Positions 24,654-60,588 of a stretch of 64,000 nt of DNA are shown one piece after another. The position numbers were made by a program, and so were the translations under genes. This DNA comes from Exiguobacterium aurantiacum. GTDB lineage: Bacteria > Bacillota > Bacilli > Exiguobacteriales > Exiguobacteriaceae. The stretch lies in assembly GCF_024362205.1 (NCBI RefSeq), contig NZ_CP101462.1, positions 1,640,501 through 1,704,500 on the forward strand, given 5' to 3'. Below the pieces are notes generated by a model that saw nothing but the letters and a program-made list of their open reading frames with translations, did not search any database and was not told the origin of the DNA. The stretch's first letter is position 1. Each line of letters starts with the position of its first letter.

Positions 24654-25403
24654 ATGAAAAATGGGAAATGGTATACGTTTTTAATTGGCTCTGTCTTCTT
24701 GACGGGCATTGCCCTATACGGTTTATGGATCGGCTATCAAGATATCGTCAATCCGCCGGAACGCACACTCTCGATTAGTGAAGATTCGAGACCGGAACCA
24801 GTCGGTGACGTGTACGTCGCCTTAGGTGACTCCCTCACACGCGGCGTCGGATCGACATCAGGTGCCGGCTACGTCCAACCAGTCGGTGCAGCGCTCGAAG
24901 AAGACGACATCCGCACACAGAATTTGGCCATCTCCGGGGCCCGGACGGAAGACTTATTGGCTCAGCTCGAGCAACCGGAAGTACGACGGACGATTGAGAA
25001 CGCGCGCTATATCACGCTCACAATCGGCGGCAACGACCTGTTCAACCGCGGCGAGAACGTCGATAACTTTGAATCGGTCGATATCGAACAAGTCGTGACC
25101 GATGCGAAGACGAATTTGAATGTCATCTTCGAACAAGTTCGCGGATTGAACGACACGGCGCAAATCGTCTATATCGCCCTTTATAACCCGTTCCAAGAGA
25201 ACGATAACGGCGAAGCGTTCAATCAATTGATTCTCGACTGGAACGCCTCGGCCGCCACATTCGGAAACGCACAGCGCATCGATGTGATTGACCCGTTCGC
25301 TTACGTCTCTGACGTCTCACGTGACCTCGCGACCGATCAGTTCCATCCGAGCGATCGCACGTATGAGAAATTAGCCGAGGACGTCCTGTTCATCCTCGAA
25401 TAA
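24654..25403 (+). CDS. Membrane-anchored SGNH/GDSL hydrolase (YpmR-like)
   Basis: 249 residues. One N-terminal membrane segment (about 8-28) acts as anchor or uncleaved signal. The GDSL block ALGDSLTRG places the nucleophile at S60, block III is GGND near 125, and the catalytic Asp/His pair is in DQFHPSD near 228. The catalytic domain should lie outside the membrane and act as lipase or esterase. An extended -10 TGATATGAT (24619-24627) lies 27 bases upstream. The start follows GTGAGG. Confidence 0.88.
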   Translation: MKNGKWYTFLIGSVFLTGIALYGLWIGYQDIVNPPERTLSISEDSRPEPVGDVYVALGDSLTRGVGSTSGAGYVQPVGAALEEDDIRTQNLAISGARTEDLLAQLEQPEVRRTIENARYITLTIGGNDLFNRGENVDNFESVDIEQVVTDAKTNLNVIFEQVRGLNDTAQIVYIALYNPFQENDNGEAFNQLILDWNASAATFGNAQRIDVIDPFAYVSDVSRDLATDQFHPSDRTYEKLAEDVLFILE

Positions 25404-25438: not shown

Positions 25439-26110
25439 TCATCGTTCATATTTGACGAGCCAGCTCTCCCCGTCGCGCGTCAAGGACGTTCCGTACCAAC
25501 CCGCCTTCAACAAAGTGACTTGTTGCTCCGTCTCGCCCATATCGAGCCATGTCACTTCTCCGGTCGGTCGCCAGTCGCTGTGCAGTTCCTTCATAAAGAT
25601 GTAGCGCAGCTTCCCGCCATATTTCGGTTTAAGGGCACCGATGCGAAGACCGAGGGCGAACTTGTCCTTCAGACTTGGGATATTGAAAGGCGCCACGGTC
25701 GCACAGACGAGATCGAACCGACTTCCGTGTTCCAGCTCTTTCATGAGAAGTTTGCCGAGATGCTGTTGCAGGCCGTAGCCGCGGTAGTCCGGATGGACGT
25801 TCGTCACTTCTTGATAAATGATGCGCTCCAGCGTCTCTGACGGATAACCGATATCATAGCCGAGATGCTCCTCATCGAGCGGTGGGATGAGCAGCGCGCG
25901 GAACGCGATCAACGTTCCTTCGTGATATGCGCCGATGAGCGTCCGGTCCGTCAACAACTTCACGAACTCCTCCGTCGACATGGACTGGTAATGGCTCCCT
26001 TCCGTCATGCTATCCATGACATCTCGTTGAACCGCCTCAATTTGTTCCAGGTCGGTCATCGTTAAATAGGTGACCTCAATGTCGAGGCCGTTACAATTAC
26101 CGCGCCACAT
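25439..26110 (-). CDS. GNAT N-acyltransferase, possible amino-acid succinyltransferase
   Basis: 223 residues. The acetyl-CoA site is VHPDYRGYGLQQHLGKLL near residue 105, with the Gly-rich loop R/GxxG. It overlaps the upstream enolase-superfamily gene by 14 bases and has GGAGGGACCGATC before the ATG, so the two are coupled. In Geobacillus a GNAT protein next to an enolase-superfamily racemase was shown to be a D-amino-acid N-succinyltransferase (established for that system). The same role here is inferred from context only. Confidence 0.85.
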   Translation of the reverse strand: MWRGNCNGLDIEVTYLTMTDLEQIEAVQRDVMDSMTEGSHYQSMSTEEFVKLLTDRTLIGAYHEGTLIAFRALLIPPLDEEHLGYDIGYPSETLERIIYQEVTNVHPDYRGYGLQQHLGKLLMKELEHGSRFDLVCATVAPFNIPSLKDKFALGLRIGALKPKYGGKLRYIFMKELHSDWRPTGEVTWLDMGETEQQVTLLKAGWYGTSLTRDGESWLVKYER

Positions 26111-27227
26111 GATCGGTCCCTCCGACGACGTACGTCGCGGTCGCCAGACGCATCAACACAGATTCGTCGACGTCGACGCCAAGCCCTGGTCGTTCAGTGA
26201 GACGAATGAACGGAAGGTCATATGACAAATTACCGATGTCTTCAGCGAAACGCAACGGACCTGTCAATTCGACCGTTTGGACGATTTTGCTTGAGAAAGC
26301 GACATGGAAGCCTGCGCTCGAGGCGACCGACGACTCGACCATCGACCCGATTTGACATTCGATGCCCGACATCTCGGCCATATGGACAAGTTTTTTCGCC
26401 GGGTAGATACCGCCGCACTTCATCAGTTTAATGTTAACTTTGTGGGCGGCCTGCATCATCGTCAGACGACGCATTTCGGTTACTCCCCGCACGCCCTCGT
26501 CAATCATGAGCGGGACCGAAATCTTTCCTTTCACTTCAACCATGCCTTCAAAATCGTCAGCCTTGACCGGCTGTTCGACCCAATCGATATGGAATGGCTC
26601 GAGCTGCTTCATCGCCTGGAGCGTCTTAGCGGCATTGACCCAGCCCTGATTGACGTCGACCCGAATCGGCACGTCCGGCCCGACGGCTCGACGGACCGCC
26701 TCGACGCGGCGTACGTCAGACGCGACGTCGACGCCGACTTTCATCTTGACGGCCGTATACCCTTGTTCGATTTGTTCACGTGCCTCAGTCGCCATCGCCT
26801 CCGGCTCGCCGATGCTTAAGACGTGTGTGACCGGGAAGGCTTCATGATATCGACCACCGAGCAGGTCATACACCGGAAGCCCAAGCTTTTTCCCGACGAC
26901 GTCATGACAGGCGATATCGAGCGCCGCCTTCGCTGCCGGCACATCACGGATGGTCCGGTCCATCATGTCATGAATCCGTTCCATCTGCATCGGGTTTTGC
27001 CCGATCAAGAGCGGTCCGAGCACATGGCGAATCACGCTAATCGTACTGTCGAGCGATTCGCCCGTGACGTGCTCATCGGCGACGGCCTCCCCGTAACCGA
27101 CATGTCCGCACTCGGTCGTCAGTTTCACGATCACCGACGGCATGTCGTCGTAGCGGTGATAACTGACGATGAATGGTACTTTTAATGGAAGACGTATCGC
27201 AAACAGTTCAATTTTCTCTATTTTCAT
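26097..27227 (-). CDS. Enolase-superfamily racemase/epimerase (MLE subgroup)
   Basis: 376 residues from ATG 27227, since the ATG two codons earlier is too close to AAGGGG. The 2-Lys chemistry of the MLE subgroup is intact: KMKVG near 165 and NIKLMKCGG near 270. Metal ligands lie in RVDVNQGW, WVEQP and MIDEG. It resembles the YkfB Ala-Glu epimerases overall, but the last barrel strand reads VELTGPLRF rather than the Asp-x-Asp that binds dipeptide amino groups. A substrate other than a dipeptide, such as an N-acyl amino acid, is therefore plausible. First gene of a pair with the GNAT. Confidence 0.88.
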   Translation of the reverse strand: MKIEKIELFAIRLPLKVPFIVSYHRYDDMPSVIVKLTTECGHVGYGEAVADEHVTGESLDSTISVIRHVLGPLLIGQNPMQMERIHDMMDRTIRDVPAAKAALDIACHDVVGKKLGLPVYDLLGGRYHEAFPVTHVLSIGEPEAMATEAREQIEQGYTAVKMKVGVDVASDVRRVEAVRRAVGPDVPIRVDVNQGWVNAAKTLQAMKQLEPFHIDWVEQPVKADDFEGMVEVKGKISVPLMIDEGVRGVTEMRRLTMMQAAHKVNIKLMKCGGIYPAKKLVHMAEMSGIECQIGSMVESSVASSAGFHVAFSSKIVQTVELTGPLRFAEDIGNLSYDLPFIRLTERPGLGVDVDESVLMRLATATYVVGGTDHVAR

Positions 27228-27245
27228 ATCCATTCCCCTTTACTT

Positions 27246-27285
27246 CTAACGTATCGTTAGCTATATTGTCGTTAAATAGTCGTTA
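27246..27285. promoter_or_regulatory. Operator region between racemase gene and regulator gene
   Basis: CTAACG (27246-27251), TAT, CGTTAG (27255-27260) is a perfect inverted repeat. It is followed by TTGTCGTTA (27266-27274) and TAGTCGTTA (27277-27285), direct repeats exactly 11 bp apart. The same 11-bp-spaced pair occurs before the NhaC gene. It is the probable binding region of the divergent regulator. Confidence 0.6.
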
Positions 27286-27305
27286 AATTGCAAGGAGGAG
27301 TTTTG

Positions 27306-28499
27306 ATGTCCATCCATATCGCCGTCGTCGGGTCACACGATTTCGTGGAAACAATCCGGTCTTTCGGTGCACCAGAAGATGTCCGGTTCGCCTATCATCC
27401 GTATGAACACCCTCACGAGGCAGCGGTTGTCGCCAAAGCGCTCGGCTCGTTCGATGGTGTCTTTTTTTCGGGGTCGTTCCCGTTCGCCTATGCGACCCCT
27501 CATCTCACGCACGTGGCCGCGCATCACGTCGTCCAAGACGAGACCGTCCTATTGACGACGCTTCTTTATGCGACGCTCACCCACTCCGTGTCGCTCAATC
27601 AAGTATCAATCGACTTGGTCGAACCGGAACGGCTGACGTCGATTCTCGACTCATTCCCGAACCAACGGAGCGCCCCCGTCGTGATGCGCATCAGTCCCGA
27701 TCTCGCATTCGAGAACGTCATCGCCTTTCACGCTAACCAGCAAGCCGGACAAGCGAAGTTGGCCATCACGAGCATCGAGCGAGTACATCATGAGCTCGTT
27801 CGTGCCGGGTTCAACAGTCAGCTGATGATTGAGCCGACAGCGACCGTCAGGCACCATCTCGACCAGTTGATTCACCAAGTTCGGCAACAGTTGGCCGATG
27901 CAGCCCAGTTCGCCATCATCCGCTACGACACGGATGACACGGCGTTGAGCGACCACCTCGCCTCGGTCCGTTATCTTGGTGGACATATCGAATCCACGGA
28001 GGACCATAACATCACGGTATTGACAACCAAAGGTGAAGTGATGAACGCGTTCGATGAAAATACGCTAACACCGAACGGGACATACCGCATCGGAATCGGC
28101 TATGGGACAGACTATCAAAAGGCCGACGAGCATGCCCAAATCGCCTTGTCTGCCGCGAGTGAGGAACGCATCCGCATCGTCGATGATTCGAAACGTTTAT
28201 CGTTCCCGACCCGTGACGCGCATATTCCGTATCGTGTGACGGAACAACTCGCCTTCGACTTTATCAAACAAGCTGGGGTCAGCCCAGTCAATATCGGGAA
28301 AATTTTACAGTTTGCCAAACGAAAGCACGATTTCACGGCAAAAGAGTTGACCGAATATCTCGACGTGACGCGACGGACGACGGAACGGCTCATAAAAAAA
28401 CTCAATGAGGCCGGAATCATCGATGTGATCGGCGAAGAGATGAGCTATAGCCAAGGCCGGCCCCGCGCCGTCTATAAATTCAATTTCCCGACCTCATGA
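27306..28499 (+). CDS. Transcriptional regulator with C-terminal winged helix
   Basis: 397 residues from ATG 27306 (AAGGAGGAGTTTTG upstream). The N-terminal ~120 residues form an unknown sensor region. Around 240-300 the stretch RIGIGYGTDYQKADEHAQIAL resembles degenerate nucleotide-cyclase-like subdomains seen in some regulators. The C-terminus (about 330-397) is a winged helix (AKELTEYLDVTRRTTERLI). It is divergent from the racemase-GNAT pair and convergent with the NhaC gene. Repeats before both neighbours point to it as local regulator. Confidence 0.8.
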   Translation: MSIHIAVVGSHDFVETIRSFGAPEDVRFAYHPYEHPHEAAVVAKALGSFDGVFFSGSFPFAYATPHLTHVAAHHVVQDETVLLTTLLYATLTHSVSLNQVSIDLVEPERLTSILDSFPNQRSAPVVMRISPDLAFENVIAFHANQQAGQAKLAITSIERVHHELVRAGFNSQLMIEPTATVRHHLDQLIHQVRQQLADAAQFAIIRYDTDDTALSDHLASVRYLGGHIESTEDHNITVLTTKGEVMNAFDENTLTPNGTYRIGIGYGTDYQKADEHAQIALSAASEERIRIVDDSKRLSFPTRDAHIPYRVTEQLAFDFIKQAGVSPVNIGKILQFAKRKHDFTAKELTEYLDVTRRTTERLIKKLNEAGIIDVIGEEMSYSQGRPRAVYKFNFPTS

Positions 28500-28516
28500 G
28501 GTCGGGAAATTTTTTC
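28482..28516. terminator. Bidirectional terminator between regulator and NhaC gene
   Basis: Fifteen-base arms 28482-28496 and 28497-28511 are perfectly self-complementary and contain the regulator's stop; T6 follows. Confidence 0.88.
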
Positions 28517-29942
28517 ATTGCGCAGCTTGTTGTTCGATTGATGGTTCTGCACTCAACACAGCGATCCGTTCAATCGTGAAACCTGTGAACGCATAGATAA
28601 TCGAGATGACCGGAACGATGAAGTTCAAGATTGCGTAAGGCGCATATTCGAATGCCCCGACGCCGAGCGTCCCGAGAATGAACACACCGCACGTGTTCCA
28701 CGGGATGAACACAGATGTCAACGTCCCACCGTCCTCGAGCGCCCGCGATAAGTTTTTCGAGTGAAGCCCCATTTTCTGATAGGCACCTGCAAACATACGA
28801 GACGGAACGACAATCGAGATGTATTGTTCGGAACACGTGGCGTTCGTCGCAATCCCTGCGAGAATCGTCGACGCGATCATCGAACCTGCCGTCTTCGCAA
28901 GTTTGACGATTTGGTTCATAATCGATTGCAGCATCCCCGAGTATTCTAAAATCCCCCCGAACGTCATCGCGACGATCGTCATCGAGACGGTGTACATCAT
29001 CGCGTCGAGCCCGCCCCGACTGAACAAGTTGTCGACGAGTTCATTGCCGGTGTCAATCACATAGCCGCTCTGCAGCGCCCCGACGCTATCCGCAAGCGTT
29101 CCGCCTTGGACGATGACTTGGGCGAGAAAGCCGAGTGCGATCCCGATGACAAGCGCCGGAATAGCGGGTACTTTTCTCGCGACGAGGACGATGACAGCAA
29201 GTGGAATCAATAAGAGCCACGGCGAGATGACGAAGCTGTCCTGTAAAATAGCGAGTGTTTGGACGATTTCTGAAGAATCCGTCGTCGTCTCACTGAACCG
29301 TCTGCCAAGCCACCAATAGGCGCCGAGCGCGATGACGAGCCCTGGAATCGTCGTGTAGAGCATATGCCGAATATGTTCGAACAAGTTTGTATGCGTCAAA
29401 CCGGCCGCGAGATTCGTCGTATCCGACAACGGGGACATCTTGTCCCCAAAGTATGCCCCTGAAATGACCGCTCCGGCGACCATCGGTGCTGGTATCCCCA
29501 TACTCAGCCCGATGCCCATCCCAGCGACACCAATCGTTCCCATCGTCGACCATGAGCTACCGATTGAGAGCGCGACGACTGAGCAGATGATACAAATGGT
29601 CACCAAGAAATAGGCCGGTGAAATAATCGTCAAGCCGTAATAAATCATTGTCGCGACGACGCCTCCCCCAATCCAGGCCCCGATCGTCAAACCGACCAAG
29701 ATGATGATGACGACGGCCGGCAAAGCGAGCCGAATCCCTTTGTACATCATCTCCTCGATCTCTTTCCACTTGTAGCCGTGTCGCCATGCGACGAGTGACG
29801 CGACCGCCGTCCCGACGATGAGCGGGATGTGTGGCCCTTGTTCTAATCGGACGATGGCTACGAGCATGACCCCAATCATGACAAGTAGCGGCAATACCGC
29901 CCAGCGAAGCTTCATGTCTACCTTGTTCCCCTGTTGTTCCAT
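28515..29942 (-). CDS. NhaC family sodium/proton-coupled transporter
   Basis: 475 residues with about 11-12 membrane segments. The family hallmarks GSSWSTMGTIGVAGMGIG near 130 and SGAYFGDKMSPLSDTTNLAA near 165 are intact. NhaC proteins include plain Na+/H+ antiporters and organic-acid or amino-acid exchangers such as MleN. Its promoter carries the same repeats as the racemase gene plus a cre site, so nutrient uptake is more likely than pH homeostasis (inference). ATG 29942 follows GGAGGAAGACAC. Confidence 0.9.
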   Translation of the reverse strand: MEQQGNKVDMKLRWAVLPLLVMIGVMLVAIVRLEQGPHIPLIVGTAVASLVAWRHGYKWKEIEEMMYKGIRLALPAVVIIILVGLTIGAWIGGGVVATMIYYGLTIISPAYFLVTICIICSVVALSIGSSWSTMGTIGVAGMGIGLSMGIPAPMVAGAVISGAYFGDKMSPLSDTTNLAAGLTHTNLFEHIRHMLYTTIPGLVIALGAYWWLGRRFSETTTDSSEIVQTLAILQDSFVISPWLLLIPLAVIVLVARKVPAIPALVIGIALGFLAQVIVQGGTLADSVGALQSGYVIDTGNELVDNLFSRGGLDAMMYTVSMTIVAMTFGGILEYSGMLQSIMNQIVKLAKTAGSMIASTILAGIATNATCSEQYISIVVPSRMFAGAYQKMGLHSKNLSRALEDGGTLTSVFIPWNTCGVFILGTLGVGAFEYAPYAILNFIVPVISIIYAFTGFTIERIAVLSAEPSIEQQAAQ

Positions 29943-29975
29943 GTGTCTTCCTCCCCGATAGTGAAAAATTCAGAA

Positions 29976-29995
29976 TTGTCGTTATATTGTCGCTA
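29976..29995 (-). promoter_or_regulatory. Direct-repeat operator before the NhaC gene
   Basis: TTGTCGTTA (29976-29984) and TTGTCGCTA (29987-29995) start 11 bp apart, as in the racemase/regulator promoter. A -10-like TATAAC on the minus strand lies between and over the repeats, with a TTATCA -35 18 bp further up, so binding would block the promoter. Confidence 0.55.
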
Positions 29996-30004
29996 ATAAG
30001 TAGA

Positions 30005-30018
30005 TGATAACGCTTACA
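30005..30018 (-). promoter_or_regulatory. cre site (CcpA) upstream of the NhaC gene
   Basis: On the minus strand TGTAAGCGTTATCA matches TGWAANCGNTNWCA at every position. It overlaps the proposed -35 TTATCA of the transporter promoter. Confidence 0.65.
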
Positions 30019-30031
30019 TTTAAAGTTGGCA

Positions 30032-30062
30032 ATAAAAAAATGAACGGGCTCGTCCGGCCCGT
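30032..30062 (-). terminator. Rho-independent terminator of the M20 gene
   Basis: ACGGGC (30044-30049) and GCCCGT (30057-30062) pair around seven bases; the minus strand continues into T7. Confidence 0.82.
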
Positions 30063-30079
30063 CCATCTAGTCAATCGCT

Positions 30080-31174
30080 TCAATTATCGTTTGCGGCCCG
30101 TCGTAACGTGTCAGCCAGCAAGGCGGCCGCTTCCGGTAAGACGTCACGTTCGAACGTCATGTGCGGATGATGGAGCCCCGGCGTCAAGTTGGCGCCGATC
30201 CCAATCATCGTCGCATCGAGTCCCGGTTGTTCGACCGTATAAAAATGAAAATCATCGCTACCCGAGGTGATGATGCGATCAACGAGCGCATTCTCCCCGA
30301 ACCGCTCGCTAATTGCTTCGGCCGCATGTCGGCTCGAGCGTTCGCCAATCACGGCGCCCGGTGTGAAGTCTTGCCACTCCCAGTCGATGGTGACGCCGTG
30401 AAGGACAGCAATCTGGTGTAGGAGTGTTTCGACACGGTCGCGCAGCTCAAGCAGTTCCTTGTTCTGTTGGGCCCGAACATCAATCGAGAACGTCGCATTT
30501 CCCGGAATAATGTTCAAATTGTCACTGCCAGCCTGAACGCCCGTCAACTTGATTGAATGCGGCTCGAACGGAGACAAGTAGATGCTTTTGAGCATCTGTT
30601 GAATCGTGAAGATGACGTCAAGCGCGTTTTGGCCTTGATGCGGACGCGCGCCATGGGCGTCGTCGCCGCTAATGCTGCCTTTCAAGAAGAATGCGGCCCC
30701 ATGTTGAATCGTAGCCGCATATTGTCCGCGCTGCAGTTCTTCGAGCGGACGCAAATGGATGCCGTACAGCTGACTGACGCCCGTTAACGCCCCGTGTTGA
30801 ATCATCGCGAGCGAGCCGTTGCCTTGTTCTTCCGCCGGTTGGAAGATAAACCGAATCCGCTTCGATAGCGTCTCATGTCTCAACTCATCGAGCGCCCCGA
30901 GCACCATGCTGATATTGGCATCGTGGCCGCATGAATGGTTGGCTTGAAACGTCCCGTCGACTTGTTGCCATAACGCGTCGATATCGGCCCGGACGGCAAT
31001 GACATCGTCTCCATCCCCAATCTCAGCGATGACACCGGTCACGTCTGCAAACGTCGCGTGACGGACTTGCCATGACGTCAAGATGTCGGCAATCGTCTTC
31101 GTCGTCTCGACTTCTTTCCAACTCACTTCTGGATGGGCATGAAAATGCTCAAACCAGTTCAATACGTTCGTCAT
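30080..31174 (-). CDS. M20 family amidohydrolase (AmhX/N-acyl-amino-acid hydrolase type)
   Basis: 364 residues. Metal-binding residues are visible in HSCGHDAN near 80, PAEE near 112, the His of GIHLRP near 139 and LHHPHM near 338. The lid/dimer domain (about 160-270) is present. The M20D group removes acyl groups from N-acyl amino acids or related amides. It sits 20 bases after the DoxX-like gene and ends at its own terminator. A deacylase would complete an acylation-racemisation-deacylation route with the nearby GNAT and racemase. Confidence 0.88.
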   Translation of the reverse strand: MTNVLNWFEHFHAHPEVSWKEVETTKTIADILTSWQVRHATFADVTGVIAEIGDGDDVIAVRADIDALWQQVDGTFQANHSCGHDANISMVLGALDELRHETLSKRIRFIFQPAEEQGNGSLAMIQHGALTGVSQLYGIHLRPLEELQRGQYAATIQHGAAFFLKGSISGDDAHGARPHQGQNALDVIFTIQQMLKSIYLSPFEPHSIKLTGVQAGSDNLNIIPGNATFSIDVRAQQNKELLELRDRVETLLHQIAVLHGVTIDWEWQDFTPGAVIGERSSRHAAEAISERFGENALVDRIITSGSDDFHFYTVEQPGLDATMIGIGANLTPGLHHPHMTFERDVLPEAAALLADTLRRAANDN

Positions 31175-60574: not shown

Positions 60575-60588
60575 TGTAAACGTTTACA
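60575..60588. promoter_or_regulatory. Perfect palindromic cre site at the 3' end of the dCMP deaminase gene
   Basis: TGTAAACGTTTACA matches the cre consensus at every position and is fully symmetric. It overlaps the stop codon (60584-60586) of the deaminase gene and lies between it and the terminator. Confidence 0.55.

What the first reader, a model, noticed from the sequence alone, without database searches (positions are those of the whole stretch)
25439..31174. Candidate acylation-racemisation-deacylation cluster for D-/L-amino acid conversion
Seen: a GNAT gene overlapping an enolase-superfamily MLE-type gene, with an NhaC transporter, an M20 deacylase-like gene and a regulator close by. 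Known: in Geobacillus kaustophilus a GNAT succinyltransferase, an N-succinylamino-acid racemase and an M20 desuccinylase convert D- to L-amino acids irreversibly. Inference: this is a variant of that pathway built on a YkfB-like epimerase whose last-strand Asp-x-Asp (dipeptide binding) is replaced by VELTGP, now joined to a transporter and its own regulator.
Basis: partly seen in the sequence, partly recalled or inferred. Interest (0 to 1): 0.72.

Follow-up and report, generated by a model that had tools for sequence, protein, structure and literature searches.

The report
N-acyl amino acid racemase salvage cluster
A conserved five-gene set in Exiguobacterium and related bacteria probably turns D-amino acids into usable L-forms by tagging, flipping and untagging them; the key enzyme belongs to a known racemase family, but the complete, self-regulated set looks little described.

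Summary
The GNAT gene overlaps the MLE-type gene by 14 nt, with NhaC, M20 and a divergent regulator beside it. The main inference is largely right, but the racemase is not a new YkfB variant. Its closest solved relative is 2p88 (64% identity; recalled as B. cereus BC0371, an N-succinyl-Arg/Lys racemase). It shares that protein's VELTGP strand and groups with it, away from dipeptide epimerases and OSBS/NSAR.

New here: the set is a conserved module. GNAT directly follows the racemase in 34 of 36 close loci and 14 of 14 fetched later, but in 0 of 34 more distant ones. Carriers swap (NhaC, TRAP, DcuC-type, peptide-binding protein).

The regulator (PrpR_N-like sensor plus winged helix) has a candidate operator, GTCGYTA-N4-GTCGYTA. 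Its core has two copies in the genome: at the racemase/regulator promoter and before nhaC. It occurs in 38 of 38 regulator loci and 2 of 32 others; in the later set in 11 of 12 and 0 of 2.

Best reading: a regulated acylate-racemise-deacylate salvage route for D-amino acids, probably basic ones. No activity was shown; acyl group, substrate and direction are inferred.

The parts
25439..26110 (-). GNAT-fold N-acyltransferase, proposed amino-acid N-(succinyl)transferase
   Evidence: AlphaFold2 model mean pLDDT 92.9; best Foldseek PDB hits are GNAT enzymes, E down to 8.8e-09; RGYGLQ in the window, G111 and Q115 of that stretch invariant in 29 sequences; Pfam Acetyltransf_1 only 13.7 bits, under its cut-off 20.7
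26097..27227 (-). [quoted passage not shown]
   Evidence: 2p88 E 3.7e-160, 64% identity, SVELTGPLK against TVELTGPLR; 30-row clade with it, support 100/99; overlaps GNAT by 14 nt
27265..27286 (+). candidate operator ATTGTCGTTAAATAGTCGTTAA between racemase and regulator
   Evidence: 0 mismatches, chance mean 0.01 for the window; one of two copies of the core in the genome
27239..27267 (+). promoter-like TTTACT-17-TATATT of the regulator, its end overlapping the operator by 3 nt
   Evidence: consensus scan only, 9 of 12; 10 such sites in the region, 4.3 (sd 2.3) expected
27306..28499 (+). regulator: PrpR_N-like sensor, middle domain, C-terminal winged helix
   Evidence: Foldseek 2q5c 9.4e-08 and 2pju 1.3e-06; HTH_11 2.7e-07; 10 of 27 members hit PrpR_N weakly, best 1.7e-4
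28515..29942 (-). NhaC-type transporter, proposed amino-acid carrier
   Evidence: TIGR00931 448 bits; ArcD model 370.5 bits, under its cut-off 650; operator copy upstream
29975..29996 (+). candidate operator ATTGTCGTTATATTGTCGCTAA before nhaC
   Evidence: present upstream of nhaC in 12 of 12 Exiguobacterium loci that have nhaC
30004..30032 (-). promoter-like TTGCCA-17-TATCAT of nhaC, overlapping the cre-like site TGTAAGCGTTATCA (30005-30018)
   Evidence: 10 of 12, the best of the scan; cre-like match (consensus recalled)
30038..30068 (-). terminator-like stem after the M20 gene
   Evidence: 12 pairs then T-run
30080..31174 (-). M20 amidohydrolase (M20D type), proposed N-acyl-L-amino acid deacylase
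   Evidence: TIGR01891 261 bits; CGHD, AEE, GIH and HHP aligned with 1ysj; orthologue next to the racemase in other genera

Best explanation
A regulated acylate-racemise-deacylate module. The NhaC-type carrier brings in a D-amino acid, most likely basic (D-Arg/D-Lys) (inferred). The GNAT N-acylates it, most likely with succinyl-CoA (inferred). The MLE-type enzyme racemises the N-acyl amino acid (shown only for its B. cereus relative, in literature that I recall but could not read). The M20 enzyme removes the acyl group from the L-form, pulling the reaction to the L-amino acid (inferred). The divergent regulator binds GTCGYTA-N4-GTCGYTA at the racemase-GNAT and nhaC promoters (binding inferred; the sites and their link to the regulator gene are shown) and responds to a small ligand in its PrpR_N-like domain (inferred). 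A cre-like site on the nhaC promoter would add carbon catabolite control (inferred).
For: 2p88 as nearest structure and the shared VELTGP motif. Tree: window and 2p88 in one 30-row clade, 100/99, with the dipeptide epimerases and OSBS/NSAR proteins used outside. GNAT directly downstream in 34 of 36 close loci and 0 of 34 distant ones; M20 orthologue (over 300 bits) near in 26 of 36, NhaC in 25, regulator in 25. In 14 further loci: GNAT 14, regulator 12, NhaC 12, M20 9. M20 lies immediately beside the racemase in L060, L066, L068, L069, L164; in the first four a TRAP transporter (NMT1_3 binding protein, DUF1850, DctM permease), M20, racemase and GNAT run in one direction, without NhaC or regulator. 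Operator core: two copies in 3.15 Mb, both here; 38 of 38 regulator loci, 2 of 32 others; 55 of 56 sites lie within 86 bp of the start of a cluster gene. 2-oxoglutarate dehydrogenase E1 is present, so a succinyl-CoA source is plausible.
Against: No activity was measured. The GNAT could use acetyl-CoA. By coordinates, of 56 genomes with the GNAT family 35 have it beside a racemase; in 21 it lies elsewhere, and 8 of those have no racemase at E 1e-90, so its substrate need not be the racemase's. L044 and L065 lie inside the clade without a linked GNAT. Ten of 36 close loci have no M20 orthologue near, 11 no NhaC, 11 no regulator. In Exiguobacterium M20 is followed by a terminator-like stem and has no operator copy. 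The carrier varies and NhaC misses the ArcD cut-off. Two of 32 loci without a regulator carry a site (their genomes, G170 and G160, have regulator relatives elsewhere); one of 12 regulator loci in the second set (L172) carries none.
Confidence: 0.6

Rival explanations
1. Same logic with another acyl group or side chain: the GNAT uses acetyl-CoA and the route handles N-acetyl amino acids, or a broad set of side chains, rather than N-succinyl-Arg/Lys.
For: GNAT neighbours by fold are mostly titled acetyltransferases; the nearest M20 structures are YxeP and hydrolases of N-acyl or IAA-amino acids.
Against: The racemase groups with 2p88, whose assigned substrates are N-succinyl-Arg/Lys (recalled). 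D53 of the window equals D51 of 2p88 and is Asp in 70 of 70 loci, Gly or Thr in 3jva and 1jpm, but it is kept in the distant loci too and its role was not tested.
Confidence: 0.2
2. A dipeptide (cell-wall or protein peptide) module: the racemase epimerises dipeptides, M20 hydrolyses them, the GNAT is unrelated.
For: 3jva and 1jpm are the next characterised relatives (39 and 37%). Six distant loci carry an SBP_bac_5 peptide-binding-type protein and a beta-lactamase-family hydrolase beside the racemase.
Against: Strand 8 lacks Asp-x-Asp; the tree puts the dipeptide epimerases outside; the SBP_bac_5 cluster is near 0 of 36 close loci and GNAT is coupled in 34 of 36.
Confidence: 0.12
3. A detoxification or disposal route: the GNAT inactivates a toxic amino acid or amine and the racemase and M20 recycle it, or make a D-amino acid.
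For: GNAT fold neighbours include phosphinothricin and polyamine acetyltransferases; GNAT occurs without the racemase in some genomes.
Against: A cre-like site and a transporter sharing the operator suggest uptake and catabolism.
Confidence: 0.08

Closest known systems
[quoted passage not shown] cereus ATCC 14579 (2p88/2p8b/2p8c; Song et al. 2007, recalled; cited in PMC4372640 and PMC4215206, passages seen)
   Same: 64% identity, same VELTGP strand-8 motif, same Lys-x-Lys and Lys, same clade
   Different: Substrate of the window enzyme untested; the B. cereus neighbourhood was not found in the genomes searched
Geobacillus kaustophilus NSAR/OSBS - GNAT succinyltransferase - M20 desuccinylase pathway (recalled; in the passages of the review PMC7431475 that I saw, only NSAR and L-succinylase appear, as tools)
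   Same: Same three enzyme types and logic
   Different: Racemase from another MLE family (low-GC menC model 119.3 bits, cut-off 200.65; separate in tree); here with NhaC carrier, own regulator and candidate operator
L-Ala-D/L-Glu epimerase YkfB (1jpm) and dipeptide epimerase (3jva)
   Same: Lys-x-Lys and metal-ligand residues aligned
   Different: 37-39% identity; Asp-x-Asp absent; outside the clade
PrpR (2pju) and 2q5c sensor domains
   Same: N-terminal fold of the regulator
   Different: C-terminal winged helix instead of an NtrC-type ATPase (recalled for PrpR)

Membership tests
Divergent NSAR (2p88 clade) | Groups with the characterised member apart from other MLE families | tested here: met
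   30-row clade 100/99; the tool flagged long branches among and towards the outgroups, and few dipeptide epimerases were included
Divergent NSAR (2p88 clade) | Active-site residues: Lys-x-Lys, Lys, Asp/Glu/Asp, VELTGP | tested here: met
   K163, K165, K269, D193, E220, D245 each in 70 of 70 loci; VELTGP as in 2p88
Divergent NSAR (2p88 clade) | Racemises N-succinyl-Arg/Lys | not testable with these tools
   needs assay
Dipeptide epimerase | Asp-x-Asp at strand 8 (recalled) | tested here: not met
   VELTGP
Dipeptide epimerase | Groups with 1jpm/3jva | tested here: not met
OSBS/NSAR (menC, low-GC) | Above the TIGR01928 cut-off and grouping with 1wue/1wuf/2zc8 | tested here: not met
   119.3 of 200.65 bits; separate in tree; the genome has a menC-like gene elsewhere
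GNAT superfamily | GNAT fold | tested here: met
   predicted model only
GNAT superfamily | Pfam gathering score | tested here: not met
   13.7 of 20.7 bits
M20D amidohydrolase | TIGR01891 cut-off and metal-site motifs (motifs recalled) | tested here: met
   261 of 153.75 bits; motifs in the alignment
NhaC carrier | TIGR00931 cut-off | tested here: met
   448 of 370 bits
ArcD arginine/ornithine antiporter | NF052307 cut-off | tested here: not met
   370.5 of 650 bits
Acylation-racemisation-deacylation pathway | Transferase, racemase and deacylase encoded together | tested here: met
Acylation-racemisation-deacylation pathway | Net D- to L-amino acid conversion | not testable with these tools
   needs assay or mutants

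The most novel reading that the evidence does not exclude
A widespread, dedicated D-basic-amino-acid salvage regulon of Bacilli, run by an unnamed regulator class (PrpR_N-like sensor plus winged helix) through an 11-bp-period direct repeat. It comes in two builds: with a GNAT and an NhaC or TRAP carrier it acylates free D-Arg/D-Lys before racemisation; without the GNAT and with a DcuC-type permease or peptide-binding protein it takes up already N-acylated amino acids or dipeptides and racemises and hydrolyses them.
Probability: 0.35. Interest if true: 0.65.

Novelty: new variant of a known kind. Interest (0 to 1): 0.46.

Why it matters
The racemase family was assigned in vitro (recalled), but I found no account of its place in the cell in the papers I could search. 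A conserved transferase, deacylase, carrier, regulator and candidate operator give a concrete physiological role that one set of deletions and three enzyme assays can settle. If right, it shows one way in which Gram-positive bacteria recover D-Arg/D-Lys, and it supplies a probably ligand-responsive regulator with a defined operator.

Tried and rejected
Rejected: membership in dipeptide epimerases and in OSBS/NSAR. GNAT orthologues away from the racemase were followed to 20 of the 21 genomes that have them unlinked (G121 not fetched); my ORF filter found a GNAT in 18 of 20 (not in L131, L150). Surroundings differ: a Mur ligase and a fumarase-like gene (L133 and alike; Pfam only for L133), NhaC (L145, L146), a TRAP transporter of the kind seen upstream of M20-racemase-GNAT (L132), others unplaced. 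Not found: a close B. cereus-group copy of the cluster (best 82% to the 2p88 protein, L163, which has all five genes). Viral contigs gave no GNAT relative, in a search that reaches close relatives only. Plasmids: 11 records with racemase relatives, all below 60%. Papers: searches listed none whose title or abstract start describes this cluster. I saw passages only of PMC4372640, PMC9912610, PMC4215206, PMC7431475, PMC2781113 and PMC11487621; PMC9912610 lists BC0371 as an MLE-family protein in a table. The key papers (Song 2007, Lukk 2012) are not held, so a description there is possible.
Full report
WHAT IS THERE. The window lies in a genome of 3.15 Mb whose nearest named relatives are Exiguobacterium. 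A GDSL-type hydrolase gene (24654-25403) converges on the GNAT.

THE RACEMASE. Its best PDB match is 2p88 (with 2p8b, 2p8c), E 3.7e-160, against 1.2e-71 for the dipeptide epimerase 3jva and 5.9e-66 for 1jpm. Aligned identity is 64, 39 and 37%. I recall 2p88 as B. cereus BC0371, assigned as an N-succinyl-Arg/Lys racemase (Song et al. 2007, not held here). The PDB tool names it only as an MLE-family protein. Passages seen in PMC4372640 say that a B. cereus ATCC 14579 MLE-family member was predicted by docking to be an N-succinyl arginine racemase, and in PMC4215206 that two families with NSAR activity exist; a table in PMC9912610 lists BC0371 as an MLE-family protein. Lys163, Lys165, Lys269, Asp193, Glu220 and Asp245 are in 70 of 70. 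In an LG+C20 tree of 64 rows the window and 2p88 lie in one 30-row clade (100/99); four dipeptide-epimerase-type proteins (1jpm, 3jva, 3q45, 3r0k; the last two so called by me) lie outside it, and four NSAR/OSBS proteins with the genome's own menC-like protein further out. The tool warned of long branches among and towards the outgroups, so the order of the deep forks is unsure.

THE MODULE. Relatives were found in 65 of 299 genomes of the class at E 1e-90; 13 Exiguobacterium loci and one Metasolibacillus locus came from the genome collection (14 used of the 17 that one search returned). I compared 70 neighbourhoods, the window itself not counted. In the 36 close loci (L032-L045, L049-L070) GNAT follows the racemase in 34, an M20 orthologue (over 300 bits) is near in 26, NhaC in 25, the regulator in 25. 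In the 34 more distant loci (L071-L104; some genomes give two or three) GNAT is near in 0, NhaC in 0, the M20 orthologue in 7 and the regulator in 13. The carrier varies: a DcuC-type permease in 12 loci (11 distant plus L065), an SBP_bac_5 protein in six distant loci, and in L060, L066, L068 and L069 a TRAP set (NMT1_3 binding protein, DUF1850, DctM permease) that runs in one direction with M20, racemase and GNAT (Pfam run on one member of each cluster). Weaker M20 relatives are adjacent in L081, L098, L099, L101, L103 and L104. A second set of 14 loci fetched afterwards gave GNAT 14, regulator 12, NhaC 12, M20 9. Clustering of all neighbours within the first 70 put these five families at the top, followed by a mixed group of ABC ATPases found in all 13 Exiguobacterium loci and 7 others. 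All 14 genomes of the window's genus label have racemase, GNAT and regulator, and all 13 of the sister genus label in the family have none at the cut-offs used.

THE GNAT. Sequence searches are weak (Acetyltransf_1 13.7 bits for the window; 9 of 29 members match that model at E 1 or better), but the model is confident (pLDDT 92.9) and its best PDB matches are GNAT enzymes. Orthologues were found in 56 of 299 genomes; 48 of those 56 also have a racemase relative, and in 35 the two are neighbours (my comparison of the lists). The other 21 are unlinked: near a Mur ligase and a fumarase-like gene, near NhaC, near a TRAP transporter, or in surroundings that I did not place. That is evidence that the GNAT's substrate may be wider than this pathway.

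THE REGULATOR AND ITS OPERATOR. The model (pLDDT 84.6, pTM 0.65) matches the PrpR_N-like domains 2q5c and 2pju and, more weakly, winged-helix DNA-binding proteins. At E 1 or better, 10 of 27 members hit PrpR_N and 6 each hit a GGDEF-type model and GCH_III, among many HTH models. Relatives occur in 108 of 299 genomes. Two near-identical sequences, ATTGTCGTTAAATAGTCGTTAA (27265-27286) and ATTGTCGTTATATTGTCGCTAA (29975-29996), are the only matches in the window with up to 3 mismatches (chance mean 0.01), and the core pattern occurs only at these two places in the whole genome with up to 2 mismatches, backwards control 0. Across the 70 loci the repeat GTCGYTA-N4-GTCGYTA (one mismatch allowed) occurs 56 times: in 38 of 38 loci with the regulator and in 2 of 32 without (L063, L086; both genomes have regulator relatives elsewhere), and 0 times in one single-base shuffle of each locus. 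55 of the 56 lie within 86 bp of the start of the racemase, regulator, NhaC, permease, SBP or M20 gene; L077 is the exception. In the second set 11 of 12 regulator loci and 0 of 2 others have it. The two half-sites are 11 bp apart, about one helical turn. At nhaC the operator sits just downstream of the best promoter-like pair of the scan, and at the regulator it overlaps the -10-like hexamer, which suits a repressor released by a ligand; this is inference. A cre-like site overlaps the nhaC promoter and is exact in 12 of 12 Exiguobacterium nhaC upstream regions and 1 of 13 others.

M20. It is a M20D-type amidohydrolase (261 bits) with the CGHD, AEE, GIH and HHP motifs aligned to 1ysj. In Exiguobacterium it precedes nhaC on the same strand; in the window it is followed by a terminator-like stem and has no operator copy. 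In other genera its orthologue is directly beside the racemase (L060, L066, L068, L069, L074, L076, L084, L090, L092, L097), which is the main reason to place it in the route.

HOW IT PROBABLY WORKS. Uptake by the carrier, N-acylation by GNAT, racemisation, hydrolysis of the L-form by M20, with the regulator sensing a substrate or intermediate. Shown: genes, families, linkage, candidate operator. Inferred: every chemical step, the basic side chain, the succinyl group, the direction and the binding of the regulator. The split between GNAT-bearing and GNAT-less builds fits the scheme: without GNAT the substrate would have to arrive already acylated, and there the carrier differs.

NOVELTY. The racemase is a new member of a known family; the logic is that of the G. 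kaustophilus pathway (recalled). What I did not find in print (listings) is the complete regulated module and its operator. The two papers most likely to mention context are not held. Hence new variant of a known kind.

Noticed in passing
   Followed up: partly
L071, L075, L078, L082, L083, L087: Distant build: regulator, operator, SBP_bac_5 protein, beta-lactamase-family hydrolase, racemase, then a different ordinary GNAT (Acetyltransf_1 3.9e-15 in L078).
   Followed up: partly
L060, L066, L068, L069; L132: A TRAP transporter set lies upstream of M20-racemase-GNAT in four loci, and a like set lies beside the unlinked GNAT of L132, whose genome (G060) has the racemase without GNAT in L065.
   Followed up: partly
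108 of 299 genomes: The regulator family (PrpR_N-like sensor plus winged helix) is widespread, in some genomes in several copies, and the window protein has no whole-length Pfam or NCBIfam match.
   Followed up: partly
G000:C1:2397120-2397986 (L002): A second enolase-superfamily gene, menC-like, 23% identical; an Exiguobacterium OSBS paper is in the reference list of PMC4215206.
   Followed up: partly
window 60575-60588: Perfect palindromic cre-like site TGTAAACGTTTACA.
   Followed up: no
L038 6740-7924: Regulator gene split into two ORFs in a metagenome-assembled Exiguobacterium while its two operator sites are present.
   Followed up: no
L145, L146: NhaC relative (666-672 bits) near a GNAT orthologue and a SarA/MarR-like gene (Pfam run for L145 only), with the racemase elsewhere in the genome.
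   Followed up: partly
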